A stretch of 64,000 nt of DNA, from assembly GCF_002078015.1 (NCBI RefSeq), contig NZ_LWBP01000191.1:1-64000 (forward strand), in the 5' to 3' direction. Position 1 is the first letter of the stretch, and each line of letters starts with the position of its first letter. A program made the translations under genes and the position numbers. Source of the DNA: Niastella populi. GTDB lineage: Bacteria > Bacteroidota > Bacteroidia > Chitinophagales > Chitinophagaceae. This document shows positions 93-55,995 of the stretch, piece after piece. Below the pieces are notes generated by a model. The model saw only the letters and a program-made list of their open reading frames with translations, did no database searches and was not told the origin of the DNA.

Positions 93-155
93 GCGTTCCG
101 TGTTTGGCATTTAATGTTCCGCGTTTGGCGTTTCGCGTTTGGCGTTATGCGTTTC
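93..155. repeat. Heptamer word array (GCGTTTC/GCGTTTG)
   Basis: Nine consecutive 7-bp units can be read without a gap, such as GCGTTCC, GTGTTTG, GCATTTA, ATGTTCC, GCGTTTG and GCGTTTC. The units vary but the 7-bp period is kept. This is one of about twenty such arrays in the window. The open frames across it are artefacts of the period, which is not a multiple of three. Confidence 0.8.
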
Positions 156-271
156 AGTTGCCTGCTTTCTGATGTAAAAATAGCACGGTAGCAGGGCGCT
201 TTGCAAGTTTCGGATGCGCTCTTTGTGTAGAATGCCTGCATTGTTTAAATGACGATAGGGGATAGTACGTA

Positions 272-313
272 GCAATAGGCATTTGACAATAGACAACAGG
301 CAGTAGGCAGTGA
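272..313. repeat. Heptamer word array (GCAATAG/GCAGTAG)
   Basis: Six 7-bp units run in phase: GCAATAG, GCATTTG, ACAATAG, ACAACAG, GCAGTAG, GCAGTGA. The rest of the first 450 bases holds no gene I can support, only this array and the one at 93-155. A related word set appears in opposite orientation at about 4354-4434. Confidence 0.7.
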
Positions 314-450
314 CCGGTTGCCCTAAGGGGCTTTTGGGCAGGGTTAAAAATTTTGTCACATGGCAACTAATGGTTATATTTAACCTGCAAACGCCTCTGA
401 TTATTAGCATAGCATTTATTCCACACACACTTACTCAAAACCATTGAGCT

Positions 451-912: not shown

Positions 913-950
913 GTTCTGCTTGTGTTGTTTTGATGTTAGTAGCAAATAAA

Positions 951-1002
951 AGGGTGGGCTGTCCCGACTTAAGCCGGGACGGACCCACCCTTATTGTTTT
1001 TT
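951..1002 (+). terminator. Rho-independent terminator after the 153-aa gene
   Basis: A long GC-rich inverted repeat pairs AGGGTGGGCTGTCCCG with CGGGACGGACCCACCCT and is followed by TTATTGTTTTTT. It ends the transcript of the upstream gene. Confidence 0.85.
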
Positions 1003-1054
1003 AAAGAACCAGCCGGCAGACCTGGCGGATGGTTCTTCCAGATGAAACCGGAGA

Positions 1055-1077
1055 TGGCACACCTTCAAGGTGTGCCA
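1055..1077. repeat. Perfect palindrome TGGCACACCTT-C-AAGGTGTGCCA
   Basis: Two 11-base arms flank a single C. The hairpin lies at the 3' end of the minus-strand metalloprotease remnant and may be its old terminator. Its words resemble those in the hairpin at 16079-16107. Confidence 0.7.
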
Positions 1078-1088
1078 CGCTTGATGAA

Positions 1089-1456: not shown

Positions 1457-1535
1457 ACATGTGTTTTTAGGTCTGTCAATTTACTAATGCTTTCAGGTAA
1501 GCCGGTGTGTTTTGGGATGGAAGAGATGCCAGTTT

Positions 1536-1638
1536 GATAATTGGATAATGTGATAATTTGATTATGTGGAAATGCTTTTATTTACTGCCTGCGCTGGAAG
1601 CTGTATTTCATTATCACATTATCAAATTATCACATTAA
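1536..1638. repeat. Facing octamer arrays (GATAATGT) forming an inverted repeat
   Basis: The left arm (1536-1567) is four 8-bp units: GATAATTG, GATAATGT, GATAATTT, GATTATGT. The right arm (about 1609-1638) is the reverse complement of the same words. Together they could form a long imperfect hairpin about ten bases before the DUF6728 start. The same word recurs at 50974-51011. Confidence 0.75.
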
Positions 1639-1647
1639 ATTTGCATT

Positions 1648-3051: not shown

Positions 3052-3080
3052 GAGGTAAAGATAAGAGAAAATAGCTTCAC

Positions 3081-4599: not shown

Positions 4600-4660
4600 C
4601 CTGAAACCGGGGATCTGAAACCCCGACCCTGAAACCCCGAACCTGTCGCCTGGAACCCGC
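4600..4660. repeat. Heptamer word array (CCTGAAA/CCCCGAA)
   Basis: Alternating 7-bp units CCTGAAA, CCGGGGA, TCTGAAA, CCCCGAC, CCTGAAA, CCCCGAA, CCTGTCG and CCTGGAA are in perfect phase. The rest of the 4293-4848 gap holds the atpG promoter and no gene. Confidence 0.75.
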
Positions 4661-6958: not shown

Positions 6959-7022
6959 AAAGTACATTTTTATAGATTATGCGCATTTGCTACCGGCGAA
7001 TGCGCATTTTTTTTGCGGAACG

Positions 7023-7129
7023 CTTAAGGCTTAACGCTAAACGCTACATCCCGCAGTGGATGATTCCCGAAAGGTTACAGATTGCCCGATATCCGGGAAG
7101 GGCGTTCTGCCTTTTGCGTTCTGCGTTCA
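7023..7129. repeat. Two heptamer arrays upstream of lysA
   Basis: CTTAAGG, CTTAACG and CTAAACG run in phase at 7023-7043, and GCGTTCT, GCCTTTT, GCGTTCT, GCGTTCA at 7102-7129. The second set uses the same words as 93-155. They fill most of the gap between scpB and lysA, so an upstream extension of the lysA frame from 7082 should not be taken as protein. Confidence 0.65.
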
Positions 7130-7156
7130 GCATTTTTGTTCTTATATTCGCATACT

Positions 7157-8401: not shown

Positions 8402-8420
8402 ATTTACATTCACTGAGAAA

Positions 8421-8542
8421 AAGTTATTGAGTTGTTCAGTTAGTAAGTTAAGTTCATGTGTTGTTGGGTTTATGCTTTTGCAAATAGCAGCCAGTTAAAA
8501 CTGAATAACTAAATAACTCAATAACTGAATAACTCAATAACT
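8421..8542. repeat. Facing octamer arrays (AGTTATTS) forming an inverted repeat
   Basis: The left arm at 8421-8455 carries AGTTATTG, AGTTGTTC, AGTTAGTA. The right arm at about 8500-8542 is the same words in reverse complement: CTGAATAA, CTAAATAA, CTCAATAA, CTGAATAA, CTCAATAA. The 8-bp period is exact on the right arm. The array ends six bases before the next ATG. The same word family recurs at 33801-33882 and 36266-36382. Confidence 0.8.
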
Positions 8543-8547
8543 TTTTT

Positions 8548-9083: not shown

Positions 9084-9136
9084 TACTTTTGAGTTCCGAT
9101 AGAAAAGGACTTAAAACTTAGAACTTAAAACTTTTT
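9084..9136 (+). promoter_or_regulatory. Possible promoter and heptamer array before the metallo-hydrolase
   Basis: TACTTTTG at 9084-9091 fits the Bacteroidota TAnnTTTG element. It is followed at 9109-9136 by four 7-bp units: ACTTAAA, ACTTAGA, ACTTAAA, ACTTTTT. The array ends six bases before the ATG at 9143, so it would lie in the 5' leader. Confidence 0.45.
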
Positions 9137-14869: not shown

Positions 14870-15308
14870 AGAGCTTTGTATCTTGCATACCTGTTCAATT
14901 GTATAGCATAGTTCAGTATTAGCCGAAAAAACAAAGCCATGAGAAAGATTCCATTGAATGTTTCTTCAAACAGTTATCATTTATTGCCGCACCAGGCAAA
15001 GCCATTAACCAGCGAATGCACAGATTTTCAGCATTTAACACGCTGGTCACCTATTAATCCTTTTTTTATTGCGCTAATTTCCAAATGTTGTACCGGGTAG
15101 AACCAGTATTGAGCCGAAGGCTTTGCGCAATCCTGAACTATACCATTTAACCTTTCCTGAACGTTATTACGACGATAATTCAAAATTATCATACATCTTT
15201 TCCGGGTAAAACATAGCCGCAGCAATCAGCCCGGGAACAACAACGGTTGCTGCATAATTTTCTCATGTGACTCGCAGCCCCTATTCTTAGGGGCTGCCTT
15301 TTTTTTAG
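14870..15308 (+). other. Possible small transcript with a 53-codon ORF and terminator
   Basis: Between the hybrid kinase and the DUF4136 gene, an ATG at 14939 opens a 53-codon frame (MRKIPLNVSSNSYHLLPH...) that ends near 15100 with CCTG before the stop. It is followed at 15274-15297 by a perfect 9-bp stem (GCAGCCCCT and AGGGGCTGC) and a T-run. I recognise no protein family. Either a small peptide gene or a non-coding RNA would explain a terminator with no ordinary gene before it. Confidence 0.3.
15274..15308 (+). terminator. Rho-independent terminator with no obvious gene
   Basis: GCAGCCCCT-ATTCTT-AGGGGCTGC is followed by CTTTTTTTT. It precedes the DUF4136 gene and lies more than 500 bases after the histidine kinase. 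Confidence 0.85.
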
Positions 15309-15460
15309 TTTGTGGTTTGTTGTTTATGGTTCTTATCAGGCCCATTTAAACCTTGTTTCCGCAACGCTAACTCTAACATTTCCTTAAGTATACTTTCACA
15401 AAGCCTTACACACCGGCACCTTCTTTTCAACGTAAATTATAGTGGTGATATAAACCCAAA

Positions 15461-21811: not shown

Positions 21812-21838
21812 TGGTGAATGGTCAATGGTGAATGTTGG
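21798..21838. repeat. Heptamer array overlapping a stop codon (TGGTGAA)
   Basis: TGGTGAA, TGGTAG, TGGTGAA, TGGTCAA, TGGTGAA and TGTTGG run in 7-bp phase apart from one unit. They begin in the last codons of the T9SS protein and include its TAG stop. Confidence 0.65.
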
Positions 21839-30698: not shown

Positions 30699-30810
30699 AA
30701 GGCACAAGGCACAAGGCACAAGGCACAAGGCAGAAGGCGGAAGGCAGAAGGCGCAAGGCGGAAGGCAGAAGGCGGAAGGCAGAAGGCACAAGGCACAAGG
30801 CGGAAGGCAA
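30699..30810. repeat. Sixteen-unit heptamer array (AAGGCAC/AAGGCAG/AAGGCGG)
   Basis: Sixteen consecutive 7-bp units all begin AAGGC and vary only in the last two bases (AC, AG, GG, GC, AA). The array sits between the divergent AraC and DapA-like genes. Open frames on both strands through it are artefacts of low complexity. Confidence 0.95.
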
Positions 30811-30929: not shown

Positions 30930-31850
30930 ATGAGTATATCATGGAAAGGTATTTTTCCTGCCTTCACAACCAAGTTTACAGCCGATGATACCCTCGATCT
31001 GGCCCTGTTTGAAAAAGGATTGCAGGCTCAACTGGATGCGGGTGTAGATGGGATTGTACTCGGAGGCAGCCTCGGGGAAGCCAGCACCCTCACTACTGAA
31101 GAAAAAGAAACGCTGGTAAAGCTTGCCATCGATATTGCCGGCCCTGTTCCGGTAGTATTGAACATTGCGGAAGGCGCCACGAAGGAAGCCATTAAACAGG
31201 CCGCCCTGGGTAAAAGCTGGGGGGTAAAAGGGTTGATGTTATTGCCGCCTATGCGATACAAAACAGATGACCGCGAAACGCTCACCTTCTTCAGGGCGGT
31301 AGCGCAGTCGACCGATCTGCCGATCATGATCTATAACAATCCCGTAGACTATAAAATAGAAGTTACGCTCGATATTTTTGAGCAGCTGCAGGAGTTTGAT
31401 AACATTCAGGCCGTAAAGGAATCAACCCGCGATGTATCGAACGTAACGCGGATGATCAACTACTTTGGCGATCGCTATAAGATCCTTTGCGGGGTTGACA
31501 CGCTGGCCATGGAAGAATTGCTGATGGGCGCCGATGGCTGGGTGGGCGGCCTGGTAACTGCATTCCCACGGGAAACAGTAGCCGTTTACCGGTTGATCAA
31601 AGCCGGGCTCATCGACGATGCCCGCGCTATATACCGCTGGTTCCTGCCGTTGCTTGAACTGGATATTCATCCCAAACTGGTACAATATATAAAACTGGCC
31701 GAAGCGCAGGTGGGACTGGGGTCGGAATATGTACGCGCACCCCGGTTAACGCTGATAGGCGAAGAGAGAGAGCGGGTGCTGAAGATTATTAATGATGGAA
31801 TTTCGTCCAGACCTGAGCTGCCTGAATACATGAAGATGGAGGTTAGTTGA
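30930..31850 (+). CDS. DapA-family aldolase/dehydratase
   Basis: A 306-residue TIM-barrel protein of the dihydrodipicolinate synthase superfamily, which binds 2-keto acids through a Schiff-base lysine. Visible residues are GGSLGEASTLT at about 45-55, Y135 in IMIYNNPVDY and the Schiff-base lysine K163 in IQAVKESTRDV. True DapA is unlikely because the gene sits in a sugar cluster (AraC regulator, GH127) and not with lysine genes. A role such as 2-keto-3-deoxy-pentonate dehydratase or a keto-deoxy-sugar aldolase fits the context but is inference. The TGA stop lies inside the first unit of a long octamer array. Confidence 0.85.
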   Translation: MSISWKGIFPAFTTKFTADDTLDLALFEKGLQAQLDAGVDGIVLGGSLGEASTLTTEEKETLVKLAIDIAGPVPVVLNIAEGATKEAIKQAALGKSWGVKGLMLLPPMRYKTDDRETLTFFRAVAQSTDLPIMIYNNPVDYKIEVTLDIFEQLQEFDNIQAVKESTRDVSNVTRMINYFGDRYKILCGVDTLAMEELLMGADGWVGGLVTAFPRETVAVYRLIKAGLIDDARAIYRWFLPLLELDIHPKLVQYIKLAEAQVGLGSEYVRAPRLTLIGEERERVLKIINDGISSRPELPEYMKMEVS

Positions 31851-31973
31851 CGGGTTGACGAGTTGACGAGTTAACGGGTTGACGAGTTGACGGGTTAACG
31901 GGTTGACGAGTTAACGGGTTGACGGGTTGACGAGTTGACGAGTTAACGGGTTGACGAGTTGACGGGTTAATGA
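31846..31973. repeat. Sixteen-unit octamer array (GTTGACGA/GTTGACGG/GTTAACGG)
   Basis: Sixteen 8-bp units drawn almost only from GTTGACGA, GTTGACGG and GTTAACGG run without a gap. The stop codon of the DapA-like gene (31848-31850) is inside the first unit. The array occupies the first 128 bases of the gap before the DUF885 gene. Confidence 0.95.
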
Positions 31974-32020: not shown

Positions 32021-32073
32021 TTTCACGTATCACGATTGCCGTTTCACGTTTCACGATTGCCGTTTCACGTTCC
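32021..32073. repeat. Heptamer array (TTTCACG/ATTGCCG)
   Basis: TTTCACG, TATCACG, ATTGCCG, TTTCACG, TTTCACG, ATTGCCG and TTTCACG run in perfect 7-bp phase and end fifteen bases before the DUF885 start. An upstream extension of that reading frame from 31974 would translate this repeat and is rejected. Confidence 0.85.
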
Positions 32074-32087
32074 AAAACAAAATTATT

Positions 32088-33800: not shown

Positions 33801-33882
33801 GAGTTGTTCAGTTATTGAGTTATTCAGTTGGAAGATTAACTCAATGACCCCGATAACTCAATAACTTAAAAACTGAATAACC
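33801..33882. repeat. Facing octamer arrays (AGTTATTS), second copy
   Basis: AGTTGTTC, AGTTATTG, AGTTATTC, AGTTGG on the left face GATAACTCAATAACTTAAAAACTGAATAAC on the right, separated by about 20 bases. It begins four bases after the DUF885 stop and ends about 20 bases before the GH127 start. Confidence 0.8.
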
Positions 33883-33901: not shown

Positions 33902-36265
33902 ATGAGAAAGTATCTATTTATATCGACACTGCTTTTATTGCTAAGTGATAGCATTTTGGGACAGTCATATGTGCCCGAAAAGCATCAGCCCAAAATGAAA
34001 GTGAAGCCGGTGGTGCCGGTGAAGGCGTATAGTTTTCACCTGCAGGATGTGCAGCTGCTCGATGGCCCGTTTAAAACAGCGATGGAAGCCGATGTGCGGT
34101 ACCTGCGGTTGATTGAGCCCGATCGCCTGCTGGCCGATTTTCGCGAGCACGCGGGTGTAAAGGCAAAAGGCGCCCGCTATGGCGGTTGGGAAAACTCGGG
34201 GCTTGCAGGCCATAGCCTTGGCCACTATTTATCGGCCTGCGCCATGCACTATGCCGTTACAAAGGATAAAACATTTCTCGATAAAGTAAATTATATAGTC
34301 ACCGAACTGGCCGAAGTACAACCCAAACGCAATGGGTATGTAGGCGCTATTCCCAAAGAAGACAGTGTTTGGGCCGAAGTGGAGAAAGGAAACATCCGCT
34401 CCCGCGGGTTCGACCTCAACGGCGCCTGGTCGCCCTGGTACACAGTGCACAAAATTATGGCGGGATTGCTCGATGCCTATCTGTACTGCGATAACAAACA
34501 GGCATTGGCGGTAGAAAAAGGTATGGCCGACTGGACGGCCCACATCATTCGCAACCTGCCCGACAGCTCTTTGCAACGCATGCTGTTTTGCGAATACGGC
34601 GGAATGAACGATGTGCTGGTGAACACTTTTGCGCTGACCGGCGAGAAGAAATACCTCGATCTCTCTTATAAATTCCACGATACACGCATCCTCGATTCGC
34701 TTGCCATGCAAAAAGATATTTTGCCCGGCAAACATTCCAATACCCAAATTCCCAAGGTTATCGGCTGCATTCGCCGTTACCAGCTCACCGCAGCCGGGAA
34801 AGACAAAACCATTGCCGATTTCTTCTGGAAAACGGTGGTTGAAGATCATACCTACGCCCCGGGCGGCAACAGCAATTATGAATACCTGGGTCCGGCCCGC
34901 AAACTGAATGAAACGCTCACCGATAACACCATGGAAACCTGCAATACCTATAATATGCTAAAGCTGACACGGCATATGTTCGCTTTGCAGCCTTCCGCCA
35001 ACCTGATGGATTATTACGAGCGCGCCCTGTACAATCATATCCTTTCTTCCCAAAACCATGGCAATGGCATGATGTGCTACTTTGTACCGCTACGGATGGG
35101 AACGCAAAAAGAATTCAGCGACTCGTTCAATACGTTTACCTGTTGTGTGGGTTCGGGAATGGAGAACCATGTAAAGTATGGCGAAAGCATTTATTTTCAG
35201 GGGGCGGATGGCAGCCTGTATGTAAACCTGTTCATTGCTTCGAAATTGAACTGGAAAGAAAAAGGCGTAGTGATAGAACAGCAAACACAATTGCCGGAAA
35301 GTAACTGGGTACGGTTTGCAATTAAAGCGGCAAGACCGGTTTCGTTTCCTTTACGTATCAGAAACCCATACTGGGCAAAACAAAAAGTGCTGGTAACTGT
35401 GAACGGAAAAGAGCAAACGAATATACAACCCGGGGCCAATGGGTATTTCACCATTACCCGTACCTGGAAAACCGGTGATGCGGTAATATTTAAACCAGAT
35501 CTGCAATTATATACGCAGCCGATGCCCGATAATCCCAACCGCGTGGCGGTGTTTTACGGTCCGCTGGTGCTGGCCGGGGTATTCGGCAACAGGGAACCCG
35601 ACCCGGTTACCGGTATTCCGGTACTGGTGTCATCGGAAACAGCACCGGCCAAATGGTTAAAGGCTGATAGCAAACAGCCGCTGGTTTTTCATTCTGTAAA
35701 TACCGGGCAACCGCAGGAGGTGACGCTGATCCCCTTCAACCAGGTGCAAAAAGAATTTTATAGCGTGTACTGGGACCTGTTTACGCCGCAGGGCTGGGCC
35801 GAACAACAAAAAGTGTATGAAGCGGAACGCAAAAGACGGCACGAAATAGAAGTAAAAACGGTTGACCTGTTACGGCTGGGTGAAATGCAGCCGGAGCGCG
35901 ATCATGATTTTGCCGGGGAGAAAGTGAATACCGGGGAAGAGCATACCAAAAAATTCAGGATAGCATACCCGGGTGGTTATTTCTCGTTCAACATGAAGGT
36001 GGATGCGGAAAAAGCCAATAGTTTGTTATGTACCTACTGGGGCATGGATAACCGCGGCAGAACGTTCGACATCCTCGTGAACGATGTAAAGATCGCCACG
36101 GAAGACCTGAATAAATACAAGGCCAGTAAATTCTATGAAATATCATATCCCATTCCTGCCGGTATTACCAGGGGAAAAGACAAAGTGAAGGTGACCTTTA
36201 TGCCCGCCGCAAATAATATGGCAGGGCCTTTATATGGCGAAGTGCGTGTGATGAGGAGAGAGTAA
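33902..36265 (+). CDS. Glycoside hydrolase family 127 (beta-L-arabinofuranosidase type)
   Basis: A 787-residue protein with a signal peptide (about 1-20). It matches the GH127/DUF1680 fold: an (alpha/alpha)6 barrel (SGLAGHSLGHYLSACAMHY, NGAWSPWYTVHKIMAGLLDAY) followed by beta-sandwich domains. GH127 enzymes use a zinc-bound cysteine nucleophile with ligands Glu-x-Cys and Cys-Cys. Here METCNTYNML places E345 and C347, and FTCCVGSG places C414 and C415, so the catalytic set is intact. The expected reaction is release of L-arabinofuranose from plant glycans or glycoproteins. It is the last gene of the AraC-linked cluster and is followed by an octamer array and terminator. Residues beyond 660 form an extra beta domain (DUF4986-like; uncertain). 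Confidence 0.9.
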   Translation: MRKYLFISTLLLLLSDSILGQSYVPEKHQPKMKVKPVVPVKAYSFHLQDVQLLDGPFKTAMEADVRYLRLIEPDRLLADFREHAGVKAKGARYGGWENSGLAGHSLGHYLSACAMHYAVTKDKTFLDKVNYIVTELAEVQPKRNGYVGAIPKEDSVWAEVEKGNIRSRGFDLNGAWSPWYTVHKIMAGLLDAYLYCDNKQALAVEKGMADWTAHIIRNLPDSSLQRMLFCEYGGMNDVLVNTFALTGEKKYLDLSYKFHDTRILDSLAMQKDILPGKHSNTQIPKVIGCIRRYQLTAAGKDKTIADFFWKTVVEDHTYAPGGNSNYEYLGPARKLNETLTDNTMETCNTYNMLKLTRHMFALQPSANLMDYYERALYNHILSSQNHGNGMMCYFVPLRMGTQKEFSDSFNTFTCCVGSGMENHVKYGESIYFQGADGSLYVNLFIASKLNWKEKGVVIEQQTQLPESNWVRFAIKAARPVSFPLRIRNPYWAKQKVLVTVNGKEQTNIQPGANGYFTITRTWKTGDAVIFKPDLQLYTQPMPDNPNRVAVFYGPLVLAGVFGNREPDPVTGIPVLVSSETAPAKWLKADSKQPLVFHSVNTGQPQEVTLIPFNQVQKEFYSVYWDLFTPQGWAEQQKVYEAERKRRHEIEVKTVDLLRLGEMQPERDHDFAGEKVNTGEEHTKKFRIAYPGGYFSFNMKVDAEKANSLLCTYWGMDNRGRTFDILVNDVKIATEDLNKYKASKFYEISYPIPAGITRGKDKVKVTFMPAANNMAGPLYGEVRVMRRE

Positions 36266-36382
36266 GTTGTTCAGTTATTCAGTTATTCAGTTAGTGAGTT
36301 TATGGGTTGAAATGAAAGTCCGGAAACAAGGGCCGCCGCTACTTTGTTTCCGGACTTTATTATTTTCAAACTGAATAACTGA
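36266..36382. repeat. Facing octamer arrays around a 15-bp terminator stem
   Basis: Directly after the GH127 stop, AGTTGTTC, AGTTATTC, AGTTATTC, AGTTAGTG run in 8-bp phase. The reverse-complement word CTGAATAACT lies at about 36370-36380 on the other side of the terminator. This is the third copy of the word family seen at 8421 and 33801. Confidence 0.75.
36315..36362. terminator. Bidirectional terminator with a perfect 15-bp stem
   Basis: AAAGTCCGGAAACAA (36315-36329) and TTGTTTCCGGACTTT (36344-36358) are exact complements around a 14-base GC-rich loop. It separates the convergent GH127 and T9SS genes. Confidence 0.9.
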
Positions 36383-38905: not shown

Positions 38906-38963
38906 GTCAATATGCTGATGTGCTAATGAGCGAATGAAATACAGCTTTAAGTAATTATATAGA

Positions 38964-39906: not shown

Positions 39907-39962
39907 AACGCTGCATGCAAAACGCCTGACGCAAAACGCAAATTGCAAAACAGCATATGCAA
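39907..39962. repeat. Heptamer array (AACGCAA/CATGCAA)
   Basis: Eight 7-bp units run in phase: AACGCTG, CATGCAA, AACGCCT, GACGCAA, AACGCAA, ATTGCAA, AACAGCA, TATGCAA. The array is just upstream of the RMD1-family start. The rest of the 39865-40408 gap is taken up by the SusC fragment and a terminator. Confidence 0.8.
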
Positions 39963-42335: not shown

Positions 42336-45110
42336 ATGCGCTATTTTGTACCCGTTATATACATGGGGCTGTCTCTGCTGATTTCCCATGTTGTTTTAGC
42401 CCAATGTCCTTCAGTTACTCCCTTATCCATAACTGGTATAACCACTACAGAAAGCAGGTGCCAGGCCTCAGGCACTGCCGAAGTTCAGCTCAGCGGCGGT
42501 ACCGCGCCTTTTGTTTACAGTATTATATCCGGGCCTGTTCAGTTTCCCGGCCAGTCTTCCAATCAGTTTCAATCGCTACCACCGGGTAACTATACCGCCC
42601 GGGTGGTTGATAATTGCAATACAACGTTTACTGCCAATTTCACCATTGCCGGTTCATATACCGTACCGCAGCCATTTTCTATACTAACGCCGCCCAGGTG
42701 TCCCGGCGCCAGTGATGGCAGTATTACTGTGAATATTACAAATGGCCGTTCTCCATATACCTATGCACTTATAAGTCCATCGCCTGTAATCAGGCCTTCA
42801 CAAACAAGCAACCAGTTCACCGGTTTAGCCGGTGGTTCGTATACATATGAGGTAACTGATTCGTGTGGTAATTTTCAAACAAGAACGGTTACGTTACCCG
42901 ATGGAAATGATGGGGCATTTTTGATTGACCGTGGTAGCCTGCATTATATAGATTGTGATTCTTTTTATTTGCCCTATAGAATTTATGCGGTTAATCCCAG
43001 CCACATCAGGGCGCCATATACCATGACCTTAACCTTGCCCGATGGAACTACAAAAACGCATGTGATCACCAATACGCAATATATTGACGGGTATATTATC
43101 CGCGATACCTTTCATTTCAGGTACCATCACCAGCATGGGGCGTTGGACAACATTCCCATCAATGCGGTGAATAGCTGTGGCGCTTCTGCAATAAGTTATG
43201 GTTATATGAATGTACTGGATATGTGGCCTAACAGGTATACTTCCGGCACCTGCAACAGAAACCTCCGCTATGCGTTTGATCCTGCATCTGACAATGGGCC
43301 CGGTTCGTTTTTCGTATACCGTTGTAATACCGTTCAATACTCGTTGTACAGCCCGGCCGGTATATTGCTGGCTTCACAAACCAATAATTCTTCTTTTTCA
43401 GGCCACCCGCCCGGCATTGGTTATAAAGTGGTGCGTGAAGACTGCTGCGGAAAAGACAGTATTACCTTTAACTGGGAAGAAAGGCCGCTGCTGAATATAT
43501 ACTCCGTTTCCATTAACCCCGCCGATGTATGTAAGGAAGGAGCAGCCGGTATAGATATACTTATTAACAATTTAACTCTCGGGGATATCATCGTTGCAAG
43601 TGGTCCGCCGTCGATTACGTTCCCTGATGGAACCGTACATAATTATATTTATCCCGATACCATGCGAAATATGCCCTTCGGCTCAACAGGCGTAAGGATC
43701 AATTATTTTGGAGCAGGCACTTACACTATCTATGCCGTAGACACCTGCGGTGAAAGGGATACGGCTACGTTTACGATAACGCCTGCCCAGTTACGTCATT
43801 CATCATTTACTGCCAACCTTATAAAAGGTTGTATTAATGATAACAGGATCGTCTTTAATGCCGGTTCTAATGGAGCCCAATACGACGCCACTATTAATAT
43901 AAACGGCCAGCTGTTCTATACGTCCTCATATCCTGCCATAGATTCAGCTGTGAATATACCGGCAGGCACCTATTCGGCCATGTATGCATACAGGGCACGC
44001 ATTGCGCCCTGGTCGTTTTTAACGGGTATGAGCGGCTATGCCTGTGATACCATTCAATATGAGATAGTAGTGCCGCCTTACGCACAACCTGCATTTGTCA
44101 TGGCCCCGGCTGTAGCCGTTTGTGGAAGCAATCGTTTCGTTGCCCTGTTGCCCGATAGCACTACGGGCGTATTTCCTTACAGGTACCGGTACAATACCGG
44201 CGCTACAACTTCACCTTTGCAAACAGGCAATGTATTCTCCGGTTTGTCGGCCGGTTTGTATAATTTTTTGATTGCCGATGGTTGTGGAAACAGTTTTTCA
44301 AACAGTGTTGCTATTGATACACTGGCGCTGCCGGCGGTAAGCGTTACCGGCGCCGCCTGCCTTGGCAGCAGTACAACCCTTACGTTGCCCGCCAATCCAT
44401 ATTATACATATAACTGGCAACACCCCGATGGAAGTACAACCGCCGGTAATACGCTAACAATGGATCCGGTAACAACAACCCATCTTGGAAATTATCAGGT
44501 CTCTGTAACCAGTAATGTGAACGGATGTACCGATCATTCATCCGGCGCCTTACAGGTAAACGACTGCATGGTCGTTCTTCCGCTAAAACTCATCTATTTC
44601 ACAGGTGATCGCCTGCACAATAACATTGTACTTAAATGGAAGACCGCTGAAGAGGCAAATACCAGCCATTTTGATGTAGAACGAAGTACCGATGGCGTTC
44701 ATTTTACCACTATACAACAGGTGAAAGCTTCCGGTACATTAACCGGAAATTATTCAGCAACTGATAACCAGCCATTAGCCGGTAAATTATTTTATCGACT
44801 TAAAATGGTGGACAAAGATGGAAAATTTACAAACAGTAGCATCATTACAATAAACAGTGATGGGAATGGCTTTTCTGTAACACCGCAACTGATCACTAAT
44901 AACTGTGAGATTAAGCTTACTTACGCTGCCGCCGAACAACCCGCGACTATTCAGATAGCGGGTATTGATGGAAGGCTGTGGTTGACCCAAGCGGTTGCCA
45001 AAGGCAGCGTTCAAACCACTATTCCAACTAATGGCCTGGCAACCGGGAGTTATCTGGTGATCTTTATAAATAATGGTAAACGTACTGCTGTAAGGGTGGT
45101 GAAGTTATAG
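42336..45110 (+). CDS. Secreted SprB-repeat-like protein with T9SS sorting domain
   Basis: A 924-residue exported protein with a signal peptide (about 1-22). Residues 23-730 are beta-rich modules with SprB-like phrases (TGTAEVQLSGGTAPFVYSI-type, here ASGTAEVQLSGGTAPFVYSI at about 46-65; CPGASDGSITVNITNGRSPYTYAL) and regularly spaced cysteines (VxDxCG motifs at the end of modules). SprB repeats occur in gliding adhesins of Bacteroidota. From about 747 comes the LPLKLIYFTGDRLHNNIVLKWKTAEEANTSHFDVERSTDGVHF pre-sorting module, and the end (about 845-924) is a T9SS type A domain. It is probably a surface adhesin. Its stop is followed within ten bases by a heptamer array. Confidence 0.85.
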   Translation: MRYFVPVIYMGLSLLISHVVLAQCPSVTPLSITGITTTESRCQASGTAEVQLSGGTAPFVYSIISGPVQFPGQSSNQFQSLPPGNYTARVVDNCNTTFTANFTIAGSYTVPQPFSILTPPRCPGASDGSITVNITNGRSPYTYALISPSPVIRPSQTSNQFTGLAGGSYTYEVTDSCGNFQTRTVTLPDGNDGAFLIDRGSLHYIDCDSFYLPYRIYAVNPSHIRAPYTMTLTLPDGTTKTHVITNTQYIDGYIIRDTFHFRYHHQHGALDNIPINAVNSCGASAISYGYMNVLDMWPNRYTSGTCNRNLRYAFDPASDNGPGSFFVYRCNTVQYSLYSPAGILLASQTNNSSFSGHPPGIGYKVVREDCCGKDSITFNWEERPLLNIYSVSINPADVCKEGAAGIDILINNLTLGDIIVASGPPSITFPDGTVHNYIYPDTMRNMPFGSTGVRINYFGAGTYTIYAVDTCGERDTATFTITPAQLRHSSFTANLIKGCINDNRIVFNAGSNGAQYDATININGQLFYTSSYPAIDSAVNIPAGTYSAMYAYRARIAPWSFLTGMSGYACDTIQYEIVVPPYAQPAFVMAPAVAVCGSNRFVALLPDSTTGVFPYRYRYNTGATTSPLQTGNVFSGLSAGLYNFLIADGCGNSFSNSVAIDTLALPAVSVTGAACLGSSTTLTLPANPYYTYNWQHPDGSTTAGNTLTMDPVTTTHLGNYQVSVTSNVNGCTDHSSGALQVNDCMVVLPLKLIYFTGDRLHNNIVLKWKTAEEANTSHFDVERSTDGVHFTTIQQVKASGTLTGNYSATDNQPLAGKLFYRLKMVDKDGKFTNSSIITINSDGNGFSVTPQLITNNCEIKLTYAAAEQPATIQIAGIDGRLWLTQAVAKGSVQTTIPTNGLATGSYLVIFINNGKRTAVRVVKL

Positions 45111-45119
45111 CTTGCGCAG

Positions 45120-45182
45120 AATGCGGAACGCTGAATGCGGAACGCCAAACGCCAAACGCTGAACGCGGAACGCAAAATGCTC
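45120..45182. repeat. Nine-unit heptamer array (AACGCCA/AACGCGG)
   Basis: AATGCGG, AACGCTG, AATGCGG, AACGCCA, AACGCCA, AACGCTG, AACGCGG, AACGCAA and AATGCTC run in perfect 7-bp phase, starting ten bases after the T9SS gene stop. Confidence 0.9.
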
Positions 45183-49407: not shown

Positions 49408-50976
49408 ATGAAACTGCTTAAACAAACTTCCATCATATTGCTTGTTGCCGGCCTCACGGCCTGTAACCGGATCATTGACCTGAAGCCCGGGTCGAATGTG
49501 ACGGTTGAGAATTACTACCGCACCTATGAAGAGGTGAAAGTAGCCCTTACCGGTTGTTATAATGGGTTGCAAAAGCCGCTGGAAACAGAATGGATGATGA
49601 CCGAATTGCGGTCTGATATTTCAAAACAGGGTTCACCGGGCAGTACGTCGGTGCCAAATATTGAATTGAATGATCTGAACACTTATTTACAGAACTCATC
49701 GCACGACAAGGTGTATGACTACTGGTATTATACCTATAAAAATATTCGTAGCGCCAATTACGTGTTGAGAAGTTTGGGCGTGGAATATACCAACGGAAAG
49801 ATCGCGTTGGGTGAACCTGTTGCGCAAATGAGCGATGCACAACGGAAACAGTTGGCCGGGGAGGCATTGTTCATCAGGGCGTATCATTATTTCAACCTGG
49901 TGCGGTTATATGGCGGTGTATTTATTCTCACCGAAAAGGAAGATCCTGTTGCATTGAAATCGATCGGCCGCTCTTCGGTAGAAGAATGTTATAAATTGAT
50001 CACTGCCGACCTGGAAACAGCACAGGAATTAATGGCCAGGAAAACCTTTAGCGCTATGGCGCAGGAAGACCTCGGCCGGGCAACCATCTGGGCCGCCAAA
50101 TCGCTGCTGGCGAAAGTATACCTTACCATCAACCGCAGAACCGACGCATTGCCATTGCTGGAAGATGTGATCAGCAACAGCGGTCACGACCTGCTGTCCG
50201 ATTATGCTGATGTGTTTTCGATCGGTAATGAAATGAACAGGGAAATTGTTTTTGCCGTGCGGTATAAAGCCGGTGGACTGGGTTTGGGTAATTATATGGC
50301 CAATTCCTTTGCCGCATTGAACAGCGGCAGCGCCCTTGTCAATGGCAACGGGTCGGGTTTGAATTATCCTACCGACAATATGGTGGCCAAATATATCATG
50401 CCTGCCAGCAGTTTTGCCGATAAACGGAAAGACGCCACTATAGCGCGGTATAATAACCTGAACTATGTAAAGAAATTCCTTTCGCCGGTGATGATAAAGA
50501 ACGATGCCGAGAACGATTTCCCGGTTCTCAGGTTTGCCGATGTACTGCTGATGAAAGCTGAAGCATTGGGTTTCGATGCGGCATCTGTTGAGATCATCAA
50601 TCGTATCAGGGCGAGAGCAGGGGCCGGAATATACCCGGGCACAGGTACTTTCTCCGCTGCTTTTTATCAGTACCCCGCATCGGGCGACGAAGCTATCACC
50701 GATGCAAACTTCCTTACCAGATTACTCGATGAAAGAAGGCTCGAGCTGGCATTCGAGAACCACCGCCTGTTCGATCTGATACGCACCGGGCAGTTCGTAA
50801 CAGCTATGCAGGCATATTATTCTTCGGAATACGATACGCATTACAAACGGTTCAAACCTGCCTTGTTGTTAACTGAGTTACAGGCGAACATCAATATACG
50901 ACCGCTTTTGCCGATACCACAACGTGAGCTGGACACCAATAATGAAATTGCGATTGAACAAAATAAAGGATATTAA
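49408..50976 (+). CDS. susD: SusD-type surface glycan-binding lipoprotein
   Basis: A 522-residue lipoprotein. The signal peptide ends at the lipobox LTAC with lipidated C19. The mature protein shows the SusD/RagB pattern: TPR helices starting YRTYEEVKVALTGCYNGLQK, the middle GEALFIRAYHYFNLVRLYGGVFI block (about 151-173) and the C-terminal LLDERRLELAFENHRLFDLIRTGQF block (about 436-460) and LLPIPQRELDTN near the end. It caps SusC and captures alginate oligomers. The start at 49408 is fixed by the lipoprotein signal; the frame runs upstream into the susC end. Its TAA stop is the beginning of an octamer array. Confidence 0.95.
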   Translation: MKLLKQTSIILLVAGLTACNRIIDLKPGSNVTVENYYRTYEEVKVALTGCYNGLQKPLETEWMMTELRSDISKQGSPGSTSVPNIELNDLNTYLQNSSHDKVYDYWYYTYKNIRSANYVLRSLGVEYTNGKIALGEPVAQMSDAQRKQLAGEALFIRAYHYFNLVRLYGGVFILTEKEDPVALKSIGRSSVEECYKLITADLETAQELMARKTFSAMAQEDLGRATIWAAKSLLAKVYLTINRRTDALPLLEDVISNSGHDLLSDYADVFSIGNEMNREIVFAVRYKAGGLGLGNYMANSFAALNSGSALVNGNGSGLNYPTDNMVAKYIMPASSFADKRKDATIARYNNLNYVKKFLSPVMIKNDAENDFPVLRFADVLLMKAEALGFDAASVEIINRIRARAGAGIYPGTGTFSAAFYQYPASGDEAITDANFLTRLLDERRLELAFENHRLFDLIRTGQFVTAMQAYYSSEYDTHYKRFKPALLLTELQANINIRPLLPIPQRELDTNNEIAIEQNKGY

Positions 50977-51011
50977 TGTGATAATGTGATAATTCGATAA
51001 TGTGATAATGG
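50974..51011. repeat. Octamer array starting at a stop codon (GATAATGT)
   Basis: After the susD TAA come GATAATGT, GATAATTC, GATAATGT and GATAATGG in 8-bp phase. The same words occur at 1536-1638. It lies inside the alginate operon, between susD and the surface lipoprotein gene. Confidence 0.85.
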
Positions 51012-52653: not shown

Positions 52654-52692
52654 AAAAAATCATTAACCTTACACCTGTAAAATAAAAGCATT

Positions 52693-53415
52693 ATGGATAC
52701 ATCAGACATAATTCAAAGCATTAAGAGCATCGAGGTGGAAAGTCCGACCAACAAGATCATCCAACAGCTAAAACAGTTGATCACCACAGGGCAATTGAAA
52801 CCGGGCGACCGACTGCCGGCCGAACGGGTGCTGGCAGAAAGATTGGGCGTTGGCCGCAGCTATGTGCGTGAAGCCATTCGCAAACTGGAGTTCTTTGGCT
52901 TGCTGAAAACTTCGCCGCAAAGCGGAACATATGTATCGGGTTACAATATAAAAATGATCGAAGGTGTATTGACCGATATCATCAACTTCAATAAGGATGA
53001 TTTTGCGGCCCTGATAGAAGCCCGCTATTATATGGAGATCAACGCGGCAAGGCTGGCAGCCATGCGGCGCACCGATGATGACCTGGCCTTGTTGCAGGCT
53101 GCTGTAGCCGATTACGATAATAAAGTGAACGGCAAACAGGATGCGGTGCAGGAAGACATGTTCATTCACCTGCGGATTGCCAATGCCACAAAGAACTCGG
53201 TGTTTGAAAGCATGCTACTGATGTTGTTGCCCGATATCATCAAAAACATCATCGATCAAAAGATCTGCGGCGATAACCGCGGTGTACAGGCGATGGCAGA
53301 GCACCATGAAATATTGCAGGCCATTGCCGATCAGGATGCCGATGCGGCCGGTGCGGCAATGGCTGCGCACCTCGATGATATTTTGAGGATAAGCAGGGAG
53401 AAGAAAGGGTGGTAA
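52693..53415 (+). CDS. FadR-type GntR transcriptional regulator of the alginate locus
   Basis: A 240-residue regulator with an N-terminal GntR winged helix (about 18-86; IIQQLKQLITTGQLKPGDRLPAERVLAERLGVGRSYVREAIRKLEFFGLLKTSPQSGTYV) and a C-terminal FCD ligand-binding domain (about 100-235; ALIEARYYMEINAARLAAMRR, then HLRIANATKNSVFESMLLML, AEHHEILQAIADQDADAAGAAMAAHL with metal-binding histidines). FCD regulators usually release DNA on binding a sugar acid; a keto-deoxy sugar acid or DEH is the expected inducer here. The twin palindromes at 45868-45894 are the probable target. Confidence 0.92.
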   Translation: MDTSDIIQSIKSIEVESPTNKIIQQLKQLITTGQLKPGDRLPAERVLAERLGVGRSYVREAIRKLEFFGLLKTSPQSGTYVSGYNIKMIEGVLTDIINFNKDDFAALIEARYYMEINAARLAAMRRTDDDLALLQAAVADYDNKVNGKQDAVQEDMFIHLRIANATKNSVFESMLLMLLPDIIKNIIDQKICGDNRGVQAMAEHHEILQAIADQDADAAGAAMAAHLDDILRISREKKGW

Positions 53416-53601
53416 GCAGGAAGAAATGAAGTATTTGAAAATCGGGAATAGAGAAATGGAACGTCTGTTGAAAAATTTCGTTAAGACATACAGGATAATG
53501 AAATGTTGCCATAGTAAGTTCCATCTGGCCAAAACTCAATTATTATTTTCAGCCGAAAAAGTGAAATATTGAATAACGAATGTCCATCACTAAATGTTGA
53601 A

Positions 53602-55995
53602 ATGAAAACCAGCAAAAACTGTAACCGCATTTTGTATTTGCGTACAGCCTGCGGCTTGCGGCTTGCAGCTGTTTTTAAAAAATATTGCTGGTTATTTGTT
53701 TTCATACTGCTTGTTGGGAAAGCGCGTGGCGCTACAATGCTGGTAAGCAATAAACAACAACTGCATGAGGCGTTGTTAAAAGCGCAGCCGGGCGATACCA
53801 TTTTGCTCAACAAAGGAAGGTGGAATAATGTAGCCCTGGTTATAGAAACAAGCGGTACCAAAGAAATGCCGGTCGTAATTGCAGCCGAAGCGCCGGGGAC
53901 GGTACAATTTACCGGCAACTCGTTCATCAGGTTTGGCGGTAACCATGTGGTGGTGTCAGGTATTCAGTTTGTTGATGGTTTTGCAGAAAATGGCGCTGTA
54001 GTAGAGTTCAGAAAGAACAATGAAAAACCTGCCAATAATTGTCGCCTTACCAACTGTGTGATCAATGATTATAACAAACCCGGCCGTTTTGATAACGAGA
54101 GCTGGATCGTATTATGGGGGCGGCATAACCGCATCGACCATTGTACCATTGGTGGTAAATTAACCGGCGGTACAACCATCATTGTTGAACTGAATGATGA
54201 ACGCAGCCAGCAGAACTATCACGAAATAGACAGCAATTATTTTAACGGAAGACTGCCATTGGGTTCCAATGGGGGCGAAACCATTCGGGTTGGCGTGTCC
54301 CGCTATGCTTTGACCTCCTCACACACCAGCATTCACCACAATTATTTTGAACGCTGCAGTGGAGAAGTGGAGATCATTTCTGTAAAAAGTTGCGACAACC
54401 AGATCAACAACAATACTTTTTATGAATGCGAAGGAGGGTTGGTGCTGCGGCATGGAGAACGCAATACTGTAACCGGCAACGTATTTATAGGTAATCAAAT
54501 GCCGCATACAGGCGGCGTGCGCATCATCAATCCCGGTCATAAAGTTAGCAATAACCTGTTTATAGAACTGGCAGGCGAGCGCTTTCATGCTGCATTCAGC
54601 GTATTGAATGGCGTTCCGAATTCATTACCTAACCGCTATGTGCAGGTAAAAGATGTGGAAATAGATCACAATACATTTGTAGGTTGTAAAAGCATAGTTT
54701 TCGGGGCTGGTAAAGATCCCGAGCGAACCGCGGCTCCGGCGAATGTTGTCTTTCGCAACAATTTGATCTCCTCTAAAAGTAATCTTTTGTATGAAGACGC
54801 CAATAATGATGGCGGTATTTTGTTCCAAAGCAACTCGGCTATTGTTCAGGGAACTGCTGCACTGGCTAAAGGATTTTCTCCTGCCGGTAAAAGCGGTGTA
54901 AGAAATGTTACCTATAAGGGAAGGTGTTATACGTTGCCCGTTCATACAAACGGGGTAGGCTTGAAGCAGGTATCCTGGATGGATGCTGACGAAGCCGGCG
55001 CCAGATGGTATGAACCGGCAGGGCCGGCACTAACCGCTCCTGTAACATACACGGTACCGGCAGCACAAAGCAAAGAGCTGCCAGGTATTGTAGCCAAAGC
55101 AAGACCCGGCGATATCATTCAGCTAGCCGATACCGGCCTGTATGAGCTCGACGAACCATTGGTGATCCGTACCCTTATAACAATCAAAGGAAGGGATGGT
55201 GAATTCAAACCGCAATTGGTAAACACCGGTGCGAAAAGTTTGCCGGCTTTTGTCATTATCGAAAATGGCGGCGGTATAACGCTGGAACATGTTCAGTTCA
55301 ACAGCGCGTATAAAAGTTATGGCGATGTGCAAACCGCCATCAGCACTACCACCAAACCCATGAACGGTCATTACCGCTTACAGGTACATGATTGTGTATT
55401 CTTCAATTTCAATGAAAGTAGTTCCGGTTGTATCCGTGGAACCAAAAGCACTTATGCCGATTCGGTGATCATTACCAACAGTTTGTTTCATCATAATTCC
55501 GGAACGGGTATCGATTTCTCGGCAGAGAAAGATGACAAAGGTATTTACAACGTAGCGCACCTGTTGGTAAGGAATTGTGTATTTACCAATATGTTGAGCA
55601 CAGCCATCAATGTATATCGCGGCGGCAACGATGAAAGTACCACCGGCCCCAACGTGGTTATAGACCATTGCACTTTCAATGAGGTGGATAACCGCATGCA
55701 GGGCTGTGTGGTAAAACTGCCGGGTGTGCAAACCGCCAGCGTTACCAATTGTGTATTCAACAAAAGCGGCGCCGGCGGCCGTTGCATCTGGTTTGAGGAA
55801 ATGAGCTGGGACAAACTGAGGGTAGACTATTGCAATTTTTATAAAAGCGGCCGCGTAAGTTCATTCTTCAATAATGTTACCGGTAAACATATTTATTACA
55901 ATAACCCTGTATTTAACGATCCGTCACTGTACGATTTCAGGCTGGCTGCGGGCACCCTGAAATCGGCCGATGGAAAACGATTGGGTGTAAACTAA
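53602..55995 (+). CDS. Polysaccharide lyase family 6 (alginate lyase)
   Basis: A 797-residue secreted lyase. Two parallel beta-helix domains follow one another: residues about 45-440 (SNKQQLHEALLKAQPGDTILLNKGRW at the start) and about 490-795 (LPGIVAKARPGDIIQLADTGLY), the arrangement known in two-domain PL6 enzymes such as AlyGC. The catalytic lysine and arginine pair, 21 residues apart in AlyGC, is matched by K262 (EIISVKSC) and R283 (GLVLRHGE). PL6 cuts alginate by beta-elimination, often at MG or G blocks. I take the ATG at 53602; a TTG at 53569 is also in frame. The signal peptide has an unusually long basic n-region encoded partly by a heptamer array. Confidence 0.9.
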   Translation: MKTSKNCNRILYLRTACGLRLAAVFKKYCWLFVFILLVGKARGATMLVSNKQQLHEALLKAQPGDTILLNKGRWNNVALVIETSGTKEMPVVIAAEAPGTVQFTGNSFIRFGGNHVVVSGIQFVDGFAENGAVVEFRKNNEKPANNCRLTNCVINDYNKPGRFDNESWIVLWGRHNRIDHCTIGGKLTGGTTIIVELNDERSQQNYHEIDSNYFNGRLPLGSNGGETIRVGVSRYALTSSHTSIHHNYFERCSGEVEIISVKSCDNQINNNTFYECEGGLVLRHGERNTVTGNVFIGNQMPHTGGVRIINPGHKVSNNLFIELAGERFHAAFSVLNGVPNSLPNRYVQVKDVEIDHNTFVGCKSIVFGAGKDPERTAAPANVVFRNNLISSKSNLLYEDANNDGGILFQSNSAIVQGTAALAKGFSPAGKSGVRNVTYKGRCYTLPVHTNGVGLKQVSWMDADEAGARWYEPAGPALTAPVTYTVPAAQSKELPGIVAKARPGDIIQLADTGLYELDEPLVIRTLITIKGRDGEFKPQLVNTGAKSLPAFVIIENGGGITLEHVQFNSAYKSYGDVQTAISTTTKPMNGHYRLQVHDCVFFNFNESSSGCIRGTKSTYADSVIITNSLFHHNSGTGIDFSAEKDDKGIYNVAHLLVRNCVFTNMLSTAINVYRGGNDESTTGPNVVIDHCTFNEVDNRMQGCVVKLPGVQTASVTNCVFNKSGAGGRCIWFEEMSWDKLRVDYCNFYKSGRVSSFFNNVTGKHIYYNNPVFNDPSLYDFRLAAGTLKSADGKRLGVN
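53646..53671. repeat. Heptamer array inside the PL6 signal-peptide region
   Basis: CCTGCGG, CTTGCGG and CTTGCAG run in 7-bp phase within the coding sequence for TACGLRLAAV. These are intergenic-style words (compare 3081-3108), here translated. Confidence 0.55.

What the first reader, a model, noticed from the sequence alone, without database searches (positions are those of the whole stretch)
93..53671. About twenty intergenic arrays built from 7-bp or 8-bp words
Low-complexity stretches between genes repeatedly resolve into gap-free units of exactly 7 or exactly 8 bases. Each locus has its own small word set: AAGGCAC/AAGGCGG (30699-30810), AACGCCA/AACGCGG (45120-45182), GCGTTTC (93-155), CCTGAAA/CCCCGAA (4600-4660), TTTCACG/ATTGCCG (32021-32073), AACGCAA (39907-39962), GTTGACGA/GTTAACGG (31846-31973), GATAATGT (1536-1638, 50974-51011), AGTTATTS (8421, 33801, 36266). 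Period is kept while letters drift, so they are not simple slippage products of one motif. Cyanobacterial STRR heptanucleotide repeats are the nearest known analogue; I know of no described Bacteroidota counterpart. Function is unknown.
Basis: partly seen in the sequence, partly recalled or inferred. Interest (0 to 1): 0.75.

Follow-up and report, generated by a model that had tools for sequence, protein, structure and literature searches.

The report
Short-repeat palindromes that overwrite gene ends
The gaps between genes in this bacterium (a relative of Niastella, Bacteroidota) are often filled with head-to-head arrays of 7- or 8-letter DNA words that run up to, and often into, the stop codon of the neighbouring gene; the layout resembles one described for a single word in Xanthomonas, but here it uses many different words that change from species to species.

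Summary
In 856 kb of this genome I count 204 intergenic arrays of period 7, 8 or 9, about 238 per Mb. In the 400 kb tested against shuffles almost none is expected, and periods 5, 6 and 10 are nearly absent.

Many arrays are arms of palindromes across the gap: left array '>', right array '<'. In 39 of 43 gaps with several classified arrays all '>' precede all '<'; '<>' was not seen. In each large word family some letters are nearly fixed and two to four vary.

Arrays abut or overlap stop codons: in tandem gaps 42 at the stop side, 7 at the start side. Stop-codon usage differs beside them, and in three orthologue sets the last codons follow the array word.

In the same gap, species carry different words or none. 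Quadruplexes (0 of 204), a G-U excess and one-for-one replacement of terminators are not supported.

The layout matches the GGGAATC heptamers of Xanthomonas (Rehm 2015); this is a new multi-word variant. Best reading: palindromic satellites that grow by local duplication, disperse, and are held at gene edges by selection. A function is unproven.

The parts
116..153 (.). 7-bp array, GCGTTTG/GCGTTTC (AACGCNN family)
272..311 (.).
1533..1637 (.). palindrome of two 8-bp arrays (1533-1568 and 1604-1637), AATGTGAT family
7019..7134 (.). inverted pair of 7-bp arrays (7019-7046 AACGCTT, 7102-7134 GCGTTCT) downstream of scpB
8418..8546 (.). palindrome of two 8-bp AGTTATTS arrays, 33-nt arms 91% complementary, after an intrinsic-terminator-like hairpin behind the decarboxylase gene; the same gap is array-free in five relatives (64-77 bp in four, 613 bp of other DNA in G004)
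9109..9133 (.). 7-bp array, ACTTAAA
10552..10569 (.). short 8-bp AGTTGACG array 5 bp after a stop codon (lower threshold only)
15302..15331 (.). 7-bp array, GTTTGTG family
21812..21837 (.). 7-bp array, ATGGTSA type, starting directly after the stop codon of 18983-21811
30699..30808 (.). 7-bp array AAGGCAC/AAGGCGG, 15.7 units
31846..31968 (.). 8-bp array GTTGACGA/GTTAACGG, 15.4 units; contains the TGA stop codon of the upstream DHDPS-family gene
32023..32074 (.). 7-bp array TTTCACG/ATTGCCG
33802..33881 (.). palindrome of two 8-bp AGTTATTS arrays (33802-33829, 33853-33881)
36265..36382 (.). 8-bp AGTTATTS array starting at the last base of the stop codon (36265-36308), a hairpin (36315-36358), and a short inverted unit (36369-36382)
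38910..38937 (.). 8-bp AATNTGMT-type array 4 bp after a stop codon (lower threshold only)
39922..39949 (.). weak 7-bp AACGCAA-type array (lower threshold only)
45116..45180 (.). 7-bp array AACGCGG/AACGCCA, 5 bp after a stop codon
50974..51010 (.). 8-bp array TAATGTGA; its first three bases are the TAA stop codon of the SusD-like gene
53640..53670 (.). 7-bp array, GCTTGCA family

Best explanation
The arrays are, in many gaps, the arms of gap-spanning palindromic satellites. A short word of 7-9 bp is amplified by local duplication (replication slippage), giving tandem arms; a copy in inverted orientation stands on the other side of the gap, so the gap reads '> <'. Families of such palindromes are copied to other gaps of the same genome, and palindromes are lost again. 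Growth into genes is cut off by selection, so arrays pile up at gene edges, above all at gene 3' ends. There a word that carries a stop triplet can take the place of the native stop codon, because periods 7 and 8 bring the triplet into all three frames. Shown here: periodicity, head-to-head layout, word families, overlap with and change of stop codons, turnover between species, similar copies at different loci, neighbouring units more alike than distant ones. Inferred: slippage as the growth step, the way copies spread (no enzyme identified), loss as a unit, and that most copies have no dedicated function.
For: Local duplication: identity between units falls from 0.77 to 0.66 (period 7) and from 0.78 to 0.66 (period 8) between 1 and 4 units apart. 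In gap X6, G004, G005 and G009 have about two ATAAGTN units per arm where own and G007 have about five, around a similar centre (read by eye).
Layout: '><' 34, '>><' 3, '>>>><' 1, '><<' 1, '>>' 2, '<<' 2, '<>' 0 of 43 gaps.
Dispersal: 160 of 452 gaps share BLAST matches (E 1e-4), one of them a 105-bp arm-centre-arm match at 86% between 352.0 and 356.2 kb of C1. The inner-edge sequence GTTGCTGCCGCRCTTTGA has 19 exact copies, 9 of them in one tandem block. Longitalea carries near-identical arms in two neighbouring gaps.
Gene-edge limit: 9 of 212 arrays of period 7-9 lie inside genes, although genes are 86% of the DNA; tandem gaps 42 at stop side, 7 at start side.
Stop codons: TAA/TGA/TAG 24/19/24 at abutting arrays, 156/56/44 without array, p=4e-4. 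Stop triplets in 2.38 of 3 frames sense against 1.04 antisense for the 26 arrays overlapping the gene by 4 bp or more. Last codons follow the word.
Turnover: arrays in 89 of 256 orthologous gap slots; of 217 species pairs with both filled, 144 share no word family.
Against: Arm lengths of inverted pairs are negatively correlated (Spearman -0.36, p=0.02, n=40), so arms do not grow in step. Slippage alone does not explain why the same few unit positions vary across loci, nor why periods 5, 6 and 10 are nearly absent. No transposase or target-site duplication was tied to them. Not every array is an arm: of solitary arrays nearest to a stop in tandem gaps 20 point away and 8 toward the gene. In gap F the same word family occurs in own, G003, G005, G006 and G007 but no array in G001, G002, G004, G008 and G009; on the nine-genome tree (G008 not in it) this needs three gains of one family or four losses.
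Confidence: 0.5

Rival explanations
1. The palindromes work in RNA: they are 3'-end hairpins that terminate transcription in both directions or protect mRNA 3' ends.
For: Head-to-head layout next to stop codons; arrays in 27 of 74 convergent, 89 of 330 tandem and 13 of 88 divergent gaps. Terminator-like hairpins are rarer at abutting ends, 4 of 73 against 61 of 256, p=2e-4. In Xac, transcripts start or end more often at G4-capable heptamer repeats than at the others (Rehm 2015).
Against: Arms show no G-U excess: 41 G-U against 54 A-C mismatches in 64 codirectional pairs. In gaps where at least two species carry abutting arrays, array-free orthologues also rarely have a terminator-like hairpin (3 of 24, plus 0 of 7 short gaps; 2 of 39 with abutting arrays), so arrays do not stand in for terminators one for one. 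Convergent orthologous gaps of 2 and 17 bp exist with neither. In gap F a terminator-like hairpin already stands before the array.
Confidence: 0.15
2. They are a classical non-autonomous mobile element (REP/BIME or MITE kind), moved by a transposase in trans; the tandem arms are incidental.
For: Dispersed families with recurring inner edges; filled and array-free orthologous gaps; each of the ten genus genomes has a Y1 transposase gene with an open frame of 146-171 aa, E 3e-22 to 5e-20, with arrays in the gap upstream of it in 8 of 10 loci.
Against: Y1 genes are also present in G010 and G011, where 60 kb each showed no 7/8/9 array; arrays lie beside many other genes too. No GTAG/GTGG head in the consensus words. 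No target-site duplication evident by eye in gap F. Words differ between species at one gap more often than they agree (144 of 217 pairs).
Confidence: 0.2
3. The words are tandem binding sites of a DNA- or RNA-binding protein; the fixed positions are contacts, the free positions are not.
For: Units have nearly fixed and free positions over many loci, e.g. AACNAYA with about 2.0 against 0.5-0.6 bits in 27 arrays. G exceeds C outward from the gene in 72 of 85 stop-proximal arrays, C exceeds G in 8, 5 ties; array-free ends 111 against 116.
Against: Fourteen word clusters with four or more members near stops (some of them related) would need many recognition modes; families are swapped at the same gap between species. 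Fixed and free columns can also arise from dispersal of a founder array that already held the variants.
Confidence: 0.1
4. G-quadruplex elements as proposed for Xanthomonas and Nostoc heptamers.
For: Similar layout and outward G bias.
Against: 0 of 204 arrays can form a G3+ quadruplex and only 9 have two or more GGG tracts.
Confidence: 0.01

Closest known systems
GGGAATC (Xanthomonas) and GGGGA(C/T)T (Nostoc PCC 7120) heptamer repeats, Rehm et al. 2015, PMC4692102 (passages and sections 13, 15, 16 read)
   Same: Heptamer units with fixed and free positions; mostly intergenic; under-represented between divergent genes; G-rich strand reading outward from the gene (my reading of their strand and distance data); most downstream repeats within 50 bp of the stop codon, some overlapping it; convergent pairs (70 cases in Xcc, 75 in Xac; few in Nostoc); length varies between relatives.
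   Different: One word per genome studied there, many here; 8- and 9-bp units here; no quadruplex potential here; [quoted passage not shown] Supply of stop codons and last residues is shown here; I did not see it in the passages read.
TAACTGA heptamer repeats of Beggiatoaceae, Cyanobacteria and five Bacteroidetes, MacGregor 2015, PMC4679880 (abstract, sections 3 and 12, and passages read)
   Same: Intergenic heptamer tandem units, also in Bacteroidota; some sets overlap a stop codon.
   Different: TAACTGA doublets: 0 in 856 kb here. In the Beggiatoaceae genome mostly just upstream of start codons and one word; here mostly at gene 3' ends, many words, head-to-head.
Cyanobacterial STRR heptanucleotide repeats (recalled; not read)
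   Same: 7-bp tandem intergenic units.
   Different: Not compared here; their words and positions are recalled only.
REP/BIME with RAYT, Nunvar et al. 2010, PMC2817692 (authors recalled; passages only)
   Same: Palindromic, intergenic, many copies; a Y1 transposase gene is present.
   Different: No GTAG/GTGG head and no single hairpin unit; arms are short tandem arrays.

Membership tests
Rehm-type heptamer repeats | Tandem 7-nt unit with fixed and free positions, intergenic | tested here: met
   periods 8 and 9 occur too
Rehm-type heptamer repeats | Convergent pairs; polarity outward from gene; close to and overlapping stop codons; fewer in divergent gaps | tested here: met
Rehm-type heptamer repeats | G tracts able to form a G-quadruplex | tested here: not met
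   0 of 204 arrays
Rehm-type heptamer repeats | Preference for four units | tested here: inconclusive
   median 5.4 units, but the score threshold removes short arrays
TAACTGA repeats (MacGregor 2015) | Word TAACTGA in direct repeats | tested here: not met
   0 doublets in 856 kb
TAACTGA repeats (MacGregor 2015) | Located just upstream of start codons (their main genome) | tested here: not met
   tandem gaps 42 at stop, 7 at start
REP/RAYT | GTAG/GTGG head on a short hairpin | tested here: not met
   consensus words of the printed families
REP/RAYT | Transposase gene flanked by two inverted cognate repeats | tested here: inconclusive
   arrays in the gap upstream of the Y1 gene in 8 of 10 genus loci, but arrays are common everywhere
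MITE | Terminal inverted repeats with target-site duplication | tested here: inconclusive
   inverted arms yes; no duplication evident by eye in one alignable filled/array-free gap (F)
Intrinsic terminators | GC-rich stem followed by a T run; stem kept by compensatory and G-U changes | tested here: inconclusive
   no G-U excess; terminator-like hairpins rare at abutting ends and in array-free orthologues; termination itself not measured
Cyanobacterial STRR | Membership of the named cyanobacterial heptamer families | not tested
   no cyanobacterial sequence compared

The most novel reading that the evidence does not exclude
A dedicated, largely word-independent process writes head-to-head arrays of 7-9-nt units into the gaps between genes of Chitinophagaceae (and, judging by the similar layout with other words, of Xanthomonas), re-writing stop codons and last residues of proteins as it goes; the arrays act as replaceable gene-boundary marks whose layout, not whose sequence, is maintained.
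Probability: 0.1. Interest if true: 0.88.

Novelty: new variant of a known kind. Interest (0 to 1): 0.62.

Why it matters
The head-to-head heptamer layout was described for single G-rich words and discussed through G-quadruplexes. Here a very similar layout, with the same outward G bias and the same hugging of stop codons, is built from many words without quadruplex potential, in another phylum, with 8- and 9-bp units as well. The layout is therefore the thing to explain, not the word. It also shows intergenic satellite DNA supplying stop codons and last residues of conserved proteins, with natural replicates: the same gap in up to ten genomes with several words or none. That makes the origin of heptamer repeats, noted as over-represented in bacteria in 2007 (Mrazek, as cited in the papers read), testable by comparing strains.

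Tried and rejected
G-quadruplex: rejected, 0 of 204. RNA stem kept by selection: no G-U excess, 41 against 54. Known RNA family: 0 Rfam matches at gathering score and no tRNA in the window. Terminator substitution: at first supported, then weakened, because array-free orthologues of the same gaps also rarely have terminator-like hairpins. Coordinated growth of the two arms: not supported, Spearman -0.36. Y1 transposase as driver: present also where no arrays were found. TAACTGA word: absent in 856 kb. Polarity as a transcription effect: start-side arrays in tandem gaps also point away from the gene, 26 of 27 within 60 bp, so the rule follows the gap and not the strand of the gene; in divergent gaps it is weaker, 7 away and 4 toward. 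Assembly artefact: arrays also occur in the single-contig genome G005. Integron attC sites were considered from recall only and dropped; not tested.

Caveats on my own tests. Family polarity was defined from stop-side arrays, so the stop-side figures 72 of 75 and 75 of 76 are partly by construction; the independent tests are the order within gaps, the start side, and the G>C count. Families with fewer than 4 members or fewer than 2 stop-side members were dropped. The uniform-placement expectation allows only offsets 0 to +5 whereas the observed window is -20 to +5; I rely on stop against start within tandem gaps instead. Sharing of a word family means consensus words within two mismatches. Three of the 30 gaps are gene overlaps that cannot hold an array. 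The listing was cut in the middle; the counts cover the cut gaps.
Full report
What was checked. The finding says that intergenic DNA of the window holds about twenty arrays of exactly 7- or 8-bp words. TRF lists them and the lag test confirms them: in 35 gaps (10.8 kb) lag 7 has z=8.6 and lag 8 z=5.6 against dinucleotide shuffles, with harmonics and nothing at 5, 6 or 9. In 400 kb of contig C1 of the same genome the excess is far larger (z 21.1 and 11.9); 63, 24 and 7 segments of period 7, 8 and 9 face at most 0.1 expected, and 345 kb of coding DNA has 0, 1 and 1. Over 856 kb (C1 1-600 kb, C67 1-192 kb, window) 204 intergenic arrays of period 7-9 were found, 238 per Mb; extrapolated to 8.6 Mb this is about 2,000, not counted directly.

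Which organism. The window is contig C190 of an 8.61-Mb genome. The best named relatives of its decarboxylase gene are Niastella vici, N. yeongjuensis and N. soli (95-96% identity), a Niastella MAG (95%) and Longitalea arenae (94%). Contig lengths show that G001, G009, G004 and G006 of the genome search are vici, yeongjuensis, soli and Longitalea; G008 fits the MAG by contig number and match position.

How wide. In the 80 named loci, period-7 or period-8 segments exceed shuffles in Niastella, Longitalea, Ferruginibacter, Chitinophaga, Parafilimonas, Flaviaesturariibacter, Pollutibacter and Foetidibacter (the last two by 2 and 1 segments), at lower density outside Niastella and Longitalea; the pooled lag score is not raised in Ferruginibacter (z 1.4 and -0.6) and only slightly in Chitinophaga (3.7 and 1.1); Paraflavisolibacter and Limnovirga had none in one locus each. 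Stop-side placement recurs there: 36 of 118 distances at stops lie within -20 to +5 bp, against 13 of 148 at starts, all periods 5-12 counted. Two same-family genomes (60 kb each) had no 7/8/9 array, and seven other order-level relatives had two period-7 and two period-9 segments in about 200 kb. The 20-base AGTTRTTS pattern with one mismatch occurs in all 10 genomes of the genus and in 1 of 9 others, there once, as often as the reversed control.

Anatomy. Clustering gave 26 families of period 7 (121 arrays, the five largest 27, 15, 14, 11 and 8), 13 of period 8 (75) and 2 of period 9 (8). In the large families three to six positions are nearly fixed and two to four are free or held to two letters, e.g. 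AACNAYA or AGTTRACN. Edges recur: AACCACA-type arrays mostly end in AAAC outside and several meet GCTGCCGCGCTTTGAG inside; several AATGTGAT-type arrays meet AATGRAATA inside. Units next to each other are more alike than distant ones.

Layout. Neighbouring arrays of one period within 150 bp are inverted in 39 cases, direct in 24 and unclear in 9 of 72; 25 further neighbours differ in period. Using family polarity, 43 gaps with two or more classified arrays read '><' 34, '>><' 3, '>>>><' 1, '><<' 1, '>>' 2, '<<' 2 and never '<>'. Arrays on the start side of tandem gaps also point away from the gene, 26 of 27 within 60 bp; divergent gaps are less clear, 7 away and 4 toward. The word right after a stop has G>C on the gene strand in 72 arrays, C>G in 8, ties 5, against 111 and 116 after array-free stops.

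Stop codons. In tandem gaps 42 arrays lie within -20 to +5 bp of the stop and 7 within the same range of the start; convergent gaps add 28. Stop usage beside abutting arrays is TAA 24, TGA 19, TAG 24 of 67; with distant arrays 43/17/12 of 72; without arrays 156/56/44 of 256 (p=4e-4 against none, 0.009 against distant). For arrays overlapping the gene by at least 4 bp (n=26), stop triplets lie in 2.38 of 3 frames on the sense strand and 1.04 antisense. Three orthologue sets were read codon by codon. Gene ending at C1 354260: own, G002, G003, G004 and G006 continue in GTTT words and all five stop with TAG, mostly after TTA or TTG; G005 and G007 continue in AATGTGATAA words and stop ATG TGA; G001 continues in an AGTA word and stops AAG TAG; G008 and G009 differ. 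Gene ending at 356166: own, G003 and G004 (GTTT words) end TGT TTA/TTG TAG, that is -CL*; G005 (AGTTCATAG) ends AGT TCA TAG; G008 and G009 end AGT TGA; G001, G002, G006 and G007 end otherwise. Gene ending at 349611: own, G003 and G006 continue in AATGTGAT words and stop with TGA, the other six stop with TAG or TAA. These three were chosen because they carry arrays in several species. Over all genes of the orthologue set tail length hardly differs (48 with abutting array: median 1, mean 2.1; 254 without: median 0, mean 2.1), so the effect is on letters more than on length.

Turnover. Thirty orthologous gaps (three of them gene overlaps) in up to ten genus genomes give 256 slots; 89 carry arrays (convergent 25 of 39, tandem 55 of 158, divergent 9 of 59). 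Twenty-two gaps have an array in at least one species and one gap in all. Of 217 species pairs with both filled, 73 share a word family and 144 do not. Gap X16 has GTTTATG in own, GTTTGTG in G003 and G004, AGTTATTC in G002, GTTACAGG-type in G007, GTTCAAA in G009 and G008, GTTCC words in G005, 17 bp in G006 and 2 bp in G001. Gap F behind the decarboxylase has an AGTTATTS palindrome in own, G003, G005, G006 and G007, and no array in G001, G002, G008 and G009 (64-77 bp) and G004 (613 bp of other DNA). On the tree of 31 concatenated proteins (nine genomes, G008 left out; two inner branches supported at only 0.83 and 0.55) this needs three gains or four losses. G002 keeps AACTGAATAACC there, which may be a remnant or a seed.

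Copying. 160 of 452 gaps of own DNA share matches at E 1e-4, many of them array on array; one pair matches over 105 bp through arm, centre and arm (86%) and another over 94 bp (82%). Longitalea has near-identical arms in gaps F and G.

What it is not. No G-quadruplex potential (0 of 204); no G-U excess in arms (41 against 54); no Rfam match in the window; TAACTGA doublets absent in 856 kb. Terminator-like hairpins are rare at abutting ends (4 of 73 against 61 of 256), but array-free orthologues of the same gaps rarely have them too (3 of 24), so arrays seem to mark gene ends without terminators rather than replace them. A Y1 transposase gene is present in all ten genus genomes but also in two same-family genomes without arrays in 60 kb.

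Mechanism. Best reading: satellites that grow by local duplication, often stand as palindromes across the gap, disperse in the genome, are lost again, and are held at gene edges by selection. A stop triplet inside the word is what lets an array replace a gene's own stop; periods 7 and 8 carry it through all frames. Unexplained: the preference for 7 and 8 over 5, 6 and 10, the fixed columns, the outward G bias across families, and how the inverted copy arises.

Known work. Rehm 2015 found, for one G-rich heptamer per genome studied, convergent pairs in Xanthomonas (few in Nostoc), outward polarity, overlap with stop codons and rarity between divergent genes. The Niastella arrays share the layout without the word or the quadruplex. 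MacGregor 2015 reports heptamer arrays in five Bacteroidetes. A survey of prokaryote satellites (PMC6749651, passages only) mentions heptamer-derived families without naming Niastella or Chitinophaga. The listings of eight library searches showed no title or abstract start describing multi-word head-to-head arrays in Chitinophagaceae; most subscription papers are not in that library.

Noticed in passing
G000 C1:452693-453304 and C67:67469-68399: A different dispersed repeat, AATCTGTTAGCGCGGT...CGCGCTGACAG in tandem, shared by two gaps of the same genome.
   Followed up: no
G000 C196:71765-72711 and C197:62-240: GTTGCTGCCGCGCTTTGA recurs nine times, four of the steps at 168 bp: a larger tandem array of a whole element.
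   Followed up: no
L204-L213: Each of the ten genus genomes has a Y1 transposase gene of about 150 aa between two genes of similar length, which looks syntenic; most also have a second, weaker match.
   Followed up: partly
window 38720-38866: Coding tandem repeat of 30/60 bp (unit GGCAAAAAAGTAAACGGCAAAGCCGCCAAT) in a 207-aa ORF at 38282-38905.
   Followed up: no
window 16541-16741: 87-bp coding repeat, 2.3 copies, in a 749-aa ORF on the minus strand.
   Followed up: no
window 42336-45110: SprB-repeat protein with a possible type IX secretion tail (below the curated cut-off), followed by a 7-bp array.
   Followed up: no
L058, L075, L078, L081, L082, L088, L089: 11-bp arrays (e.g. GACCTAACAGG) in several Chitinophagaceae: a further recurring period.
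   Followed up: partly
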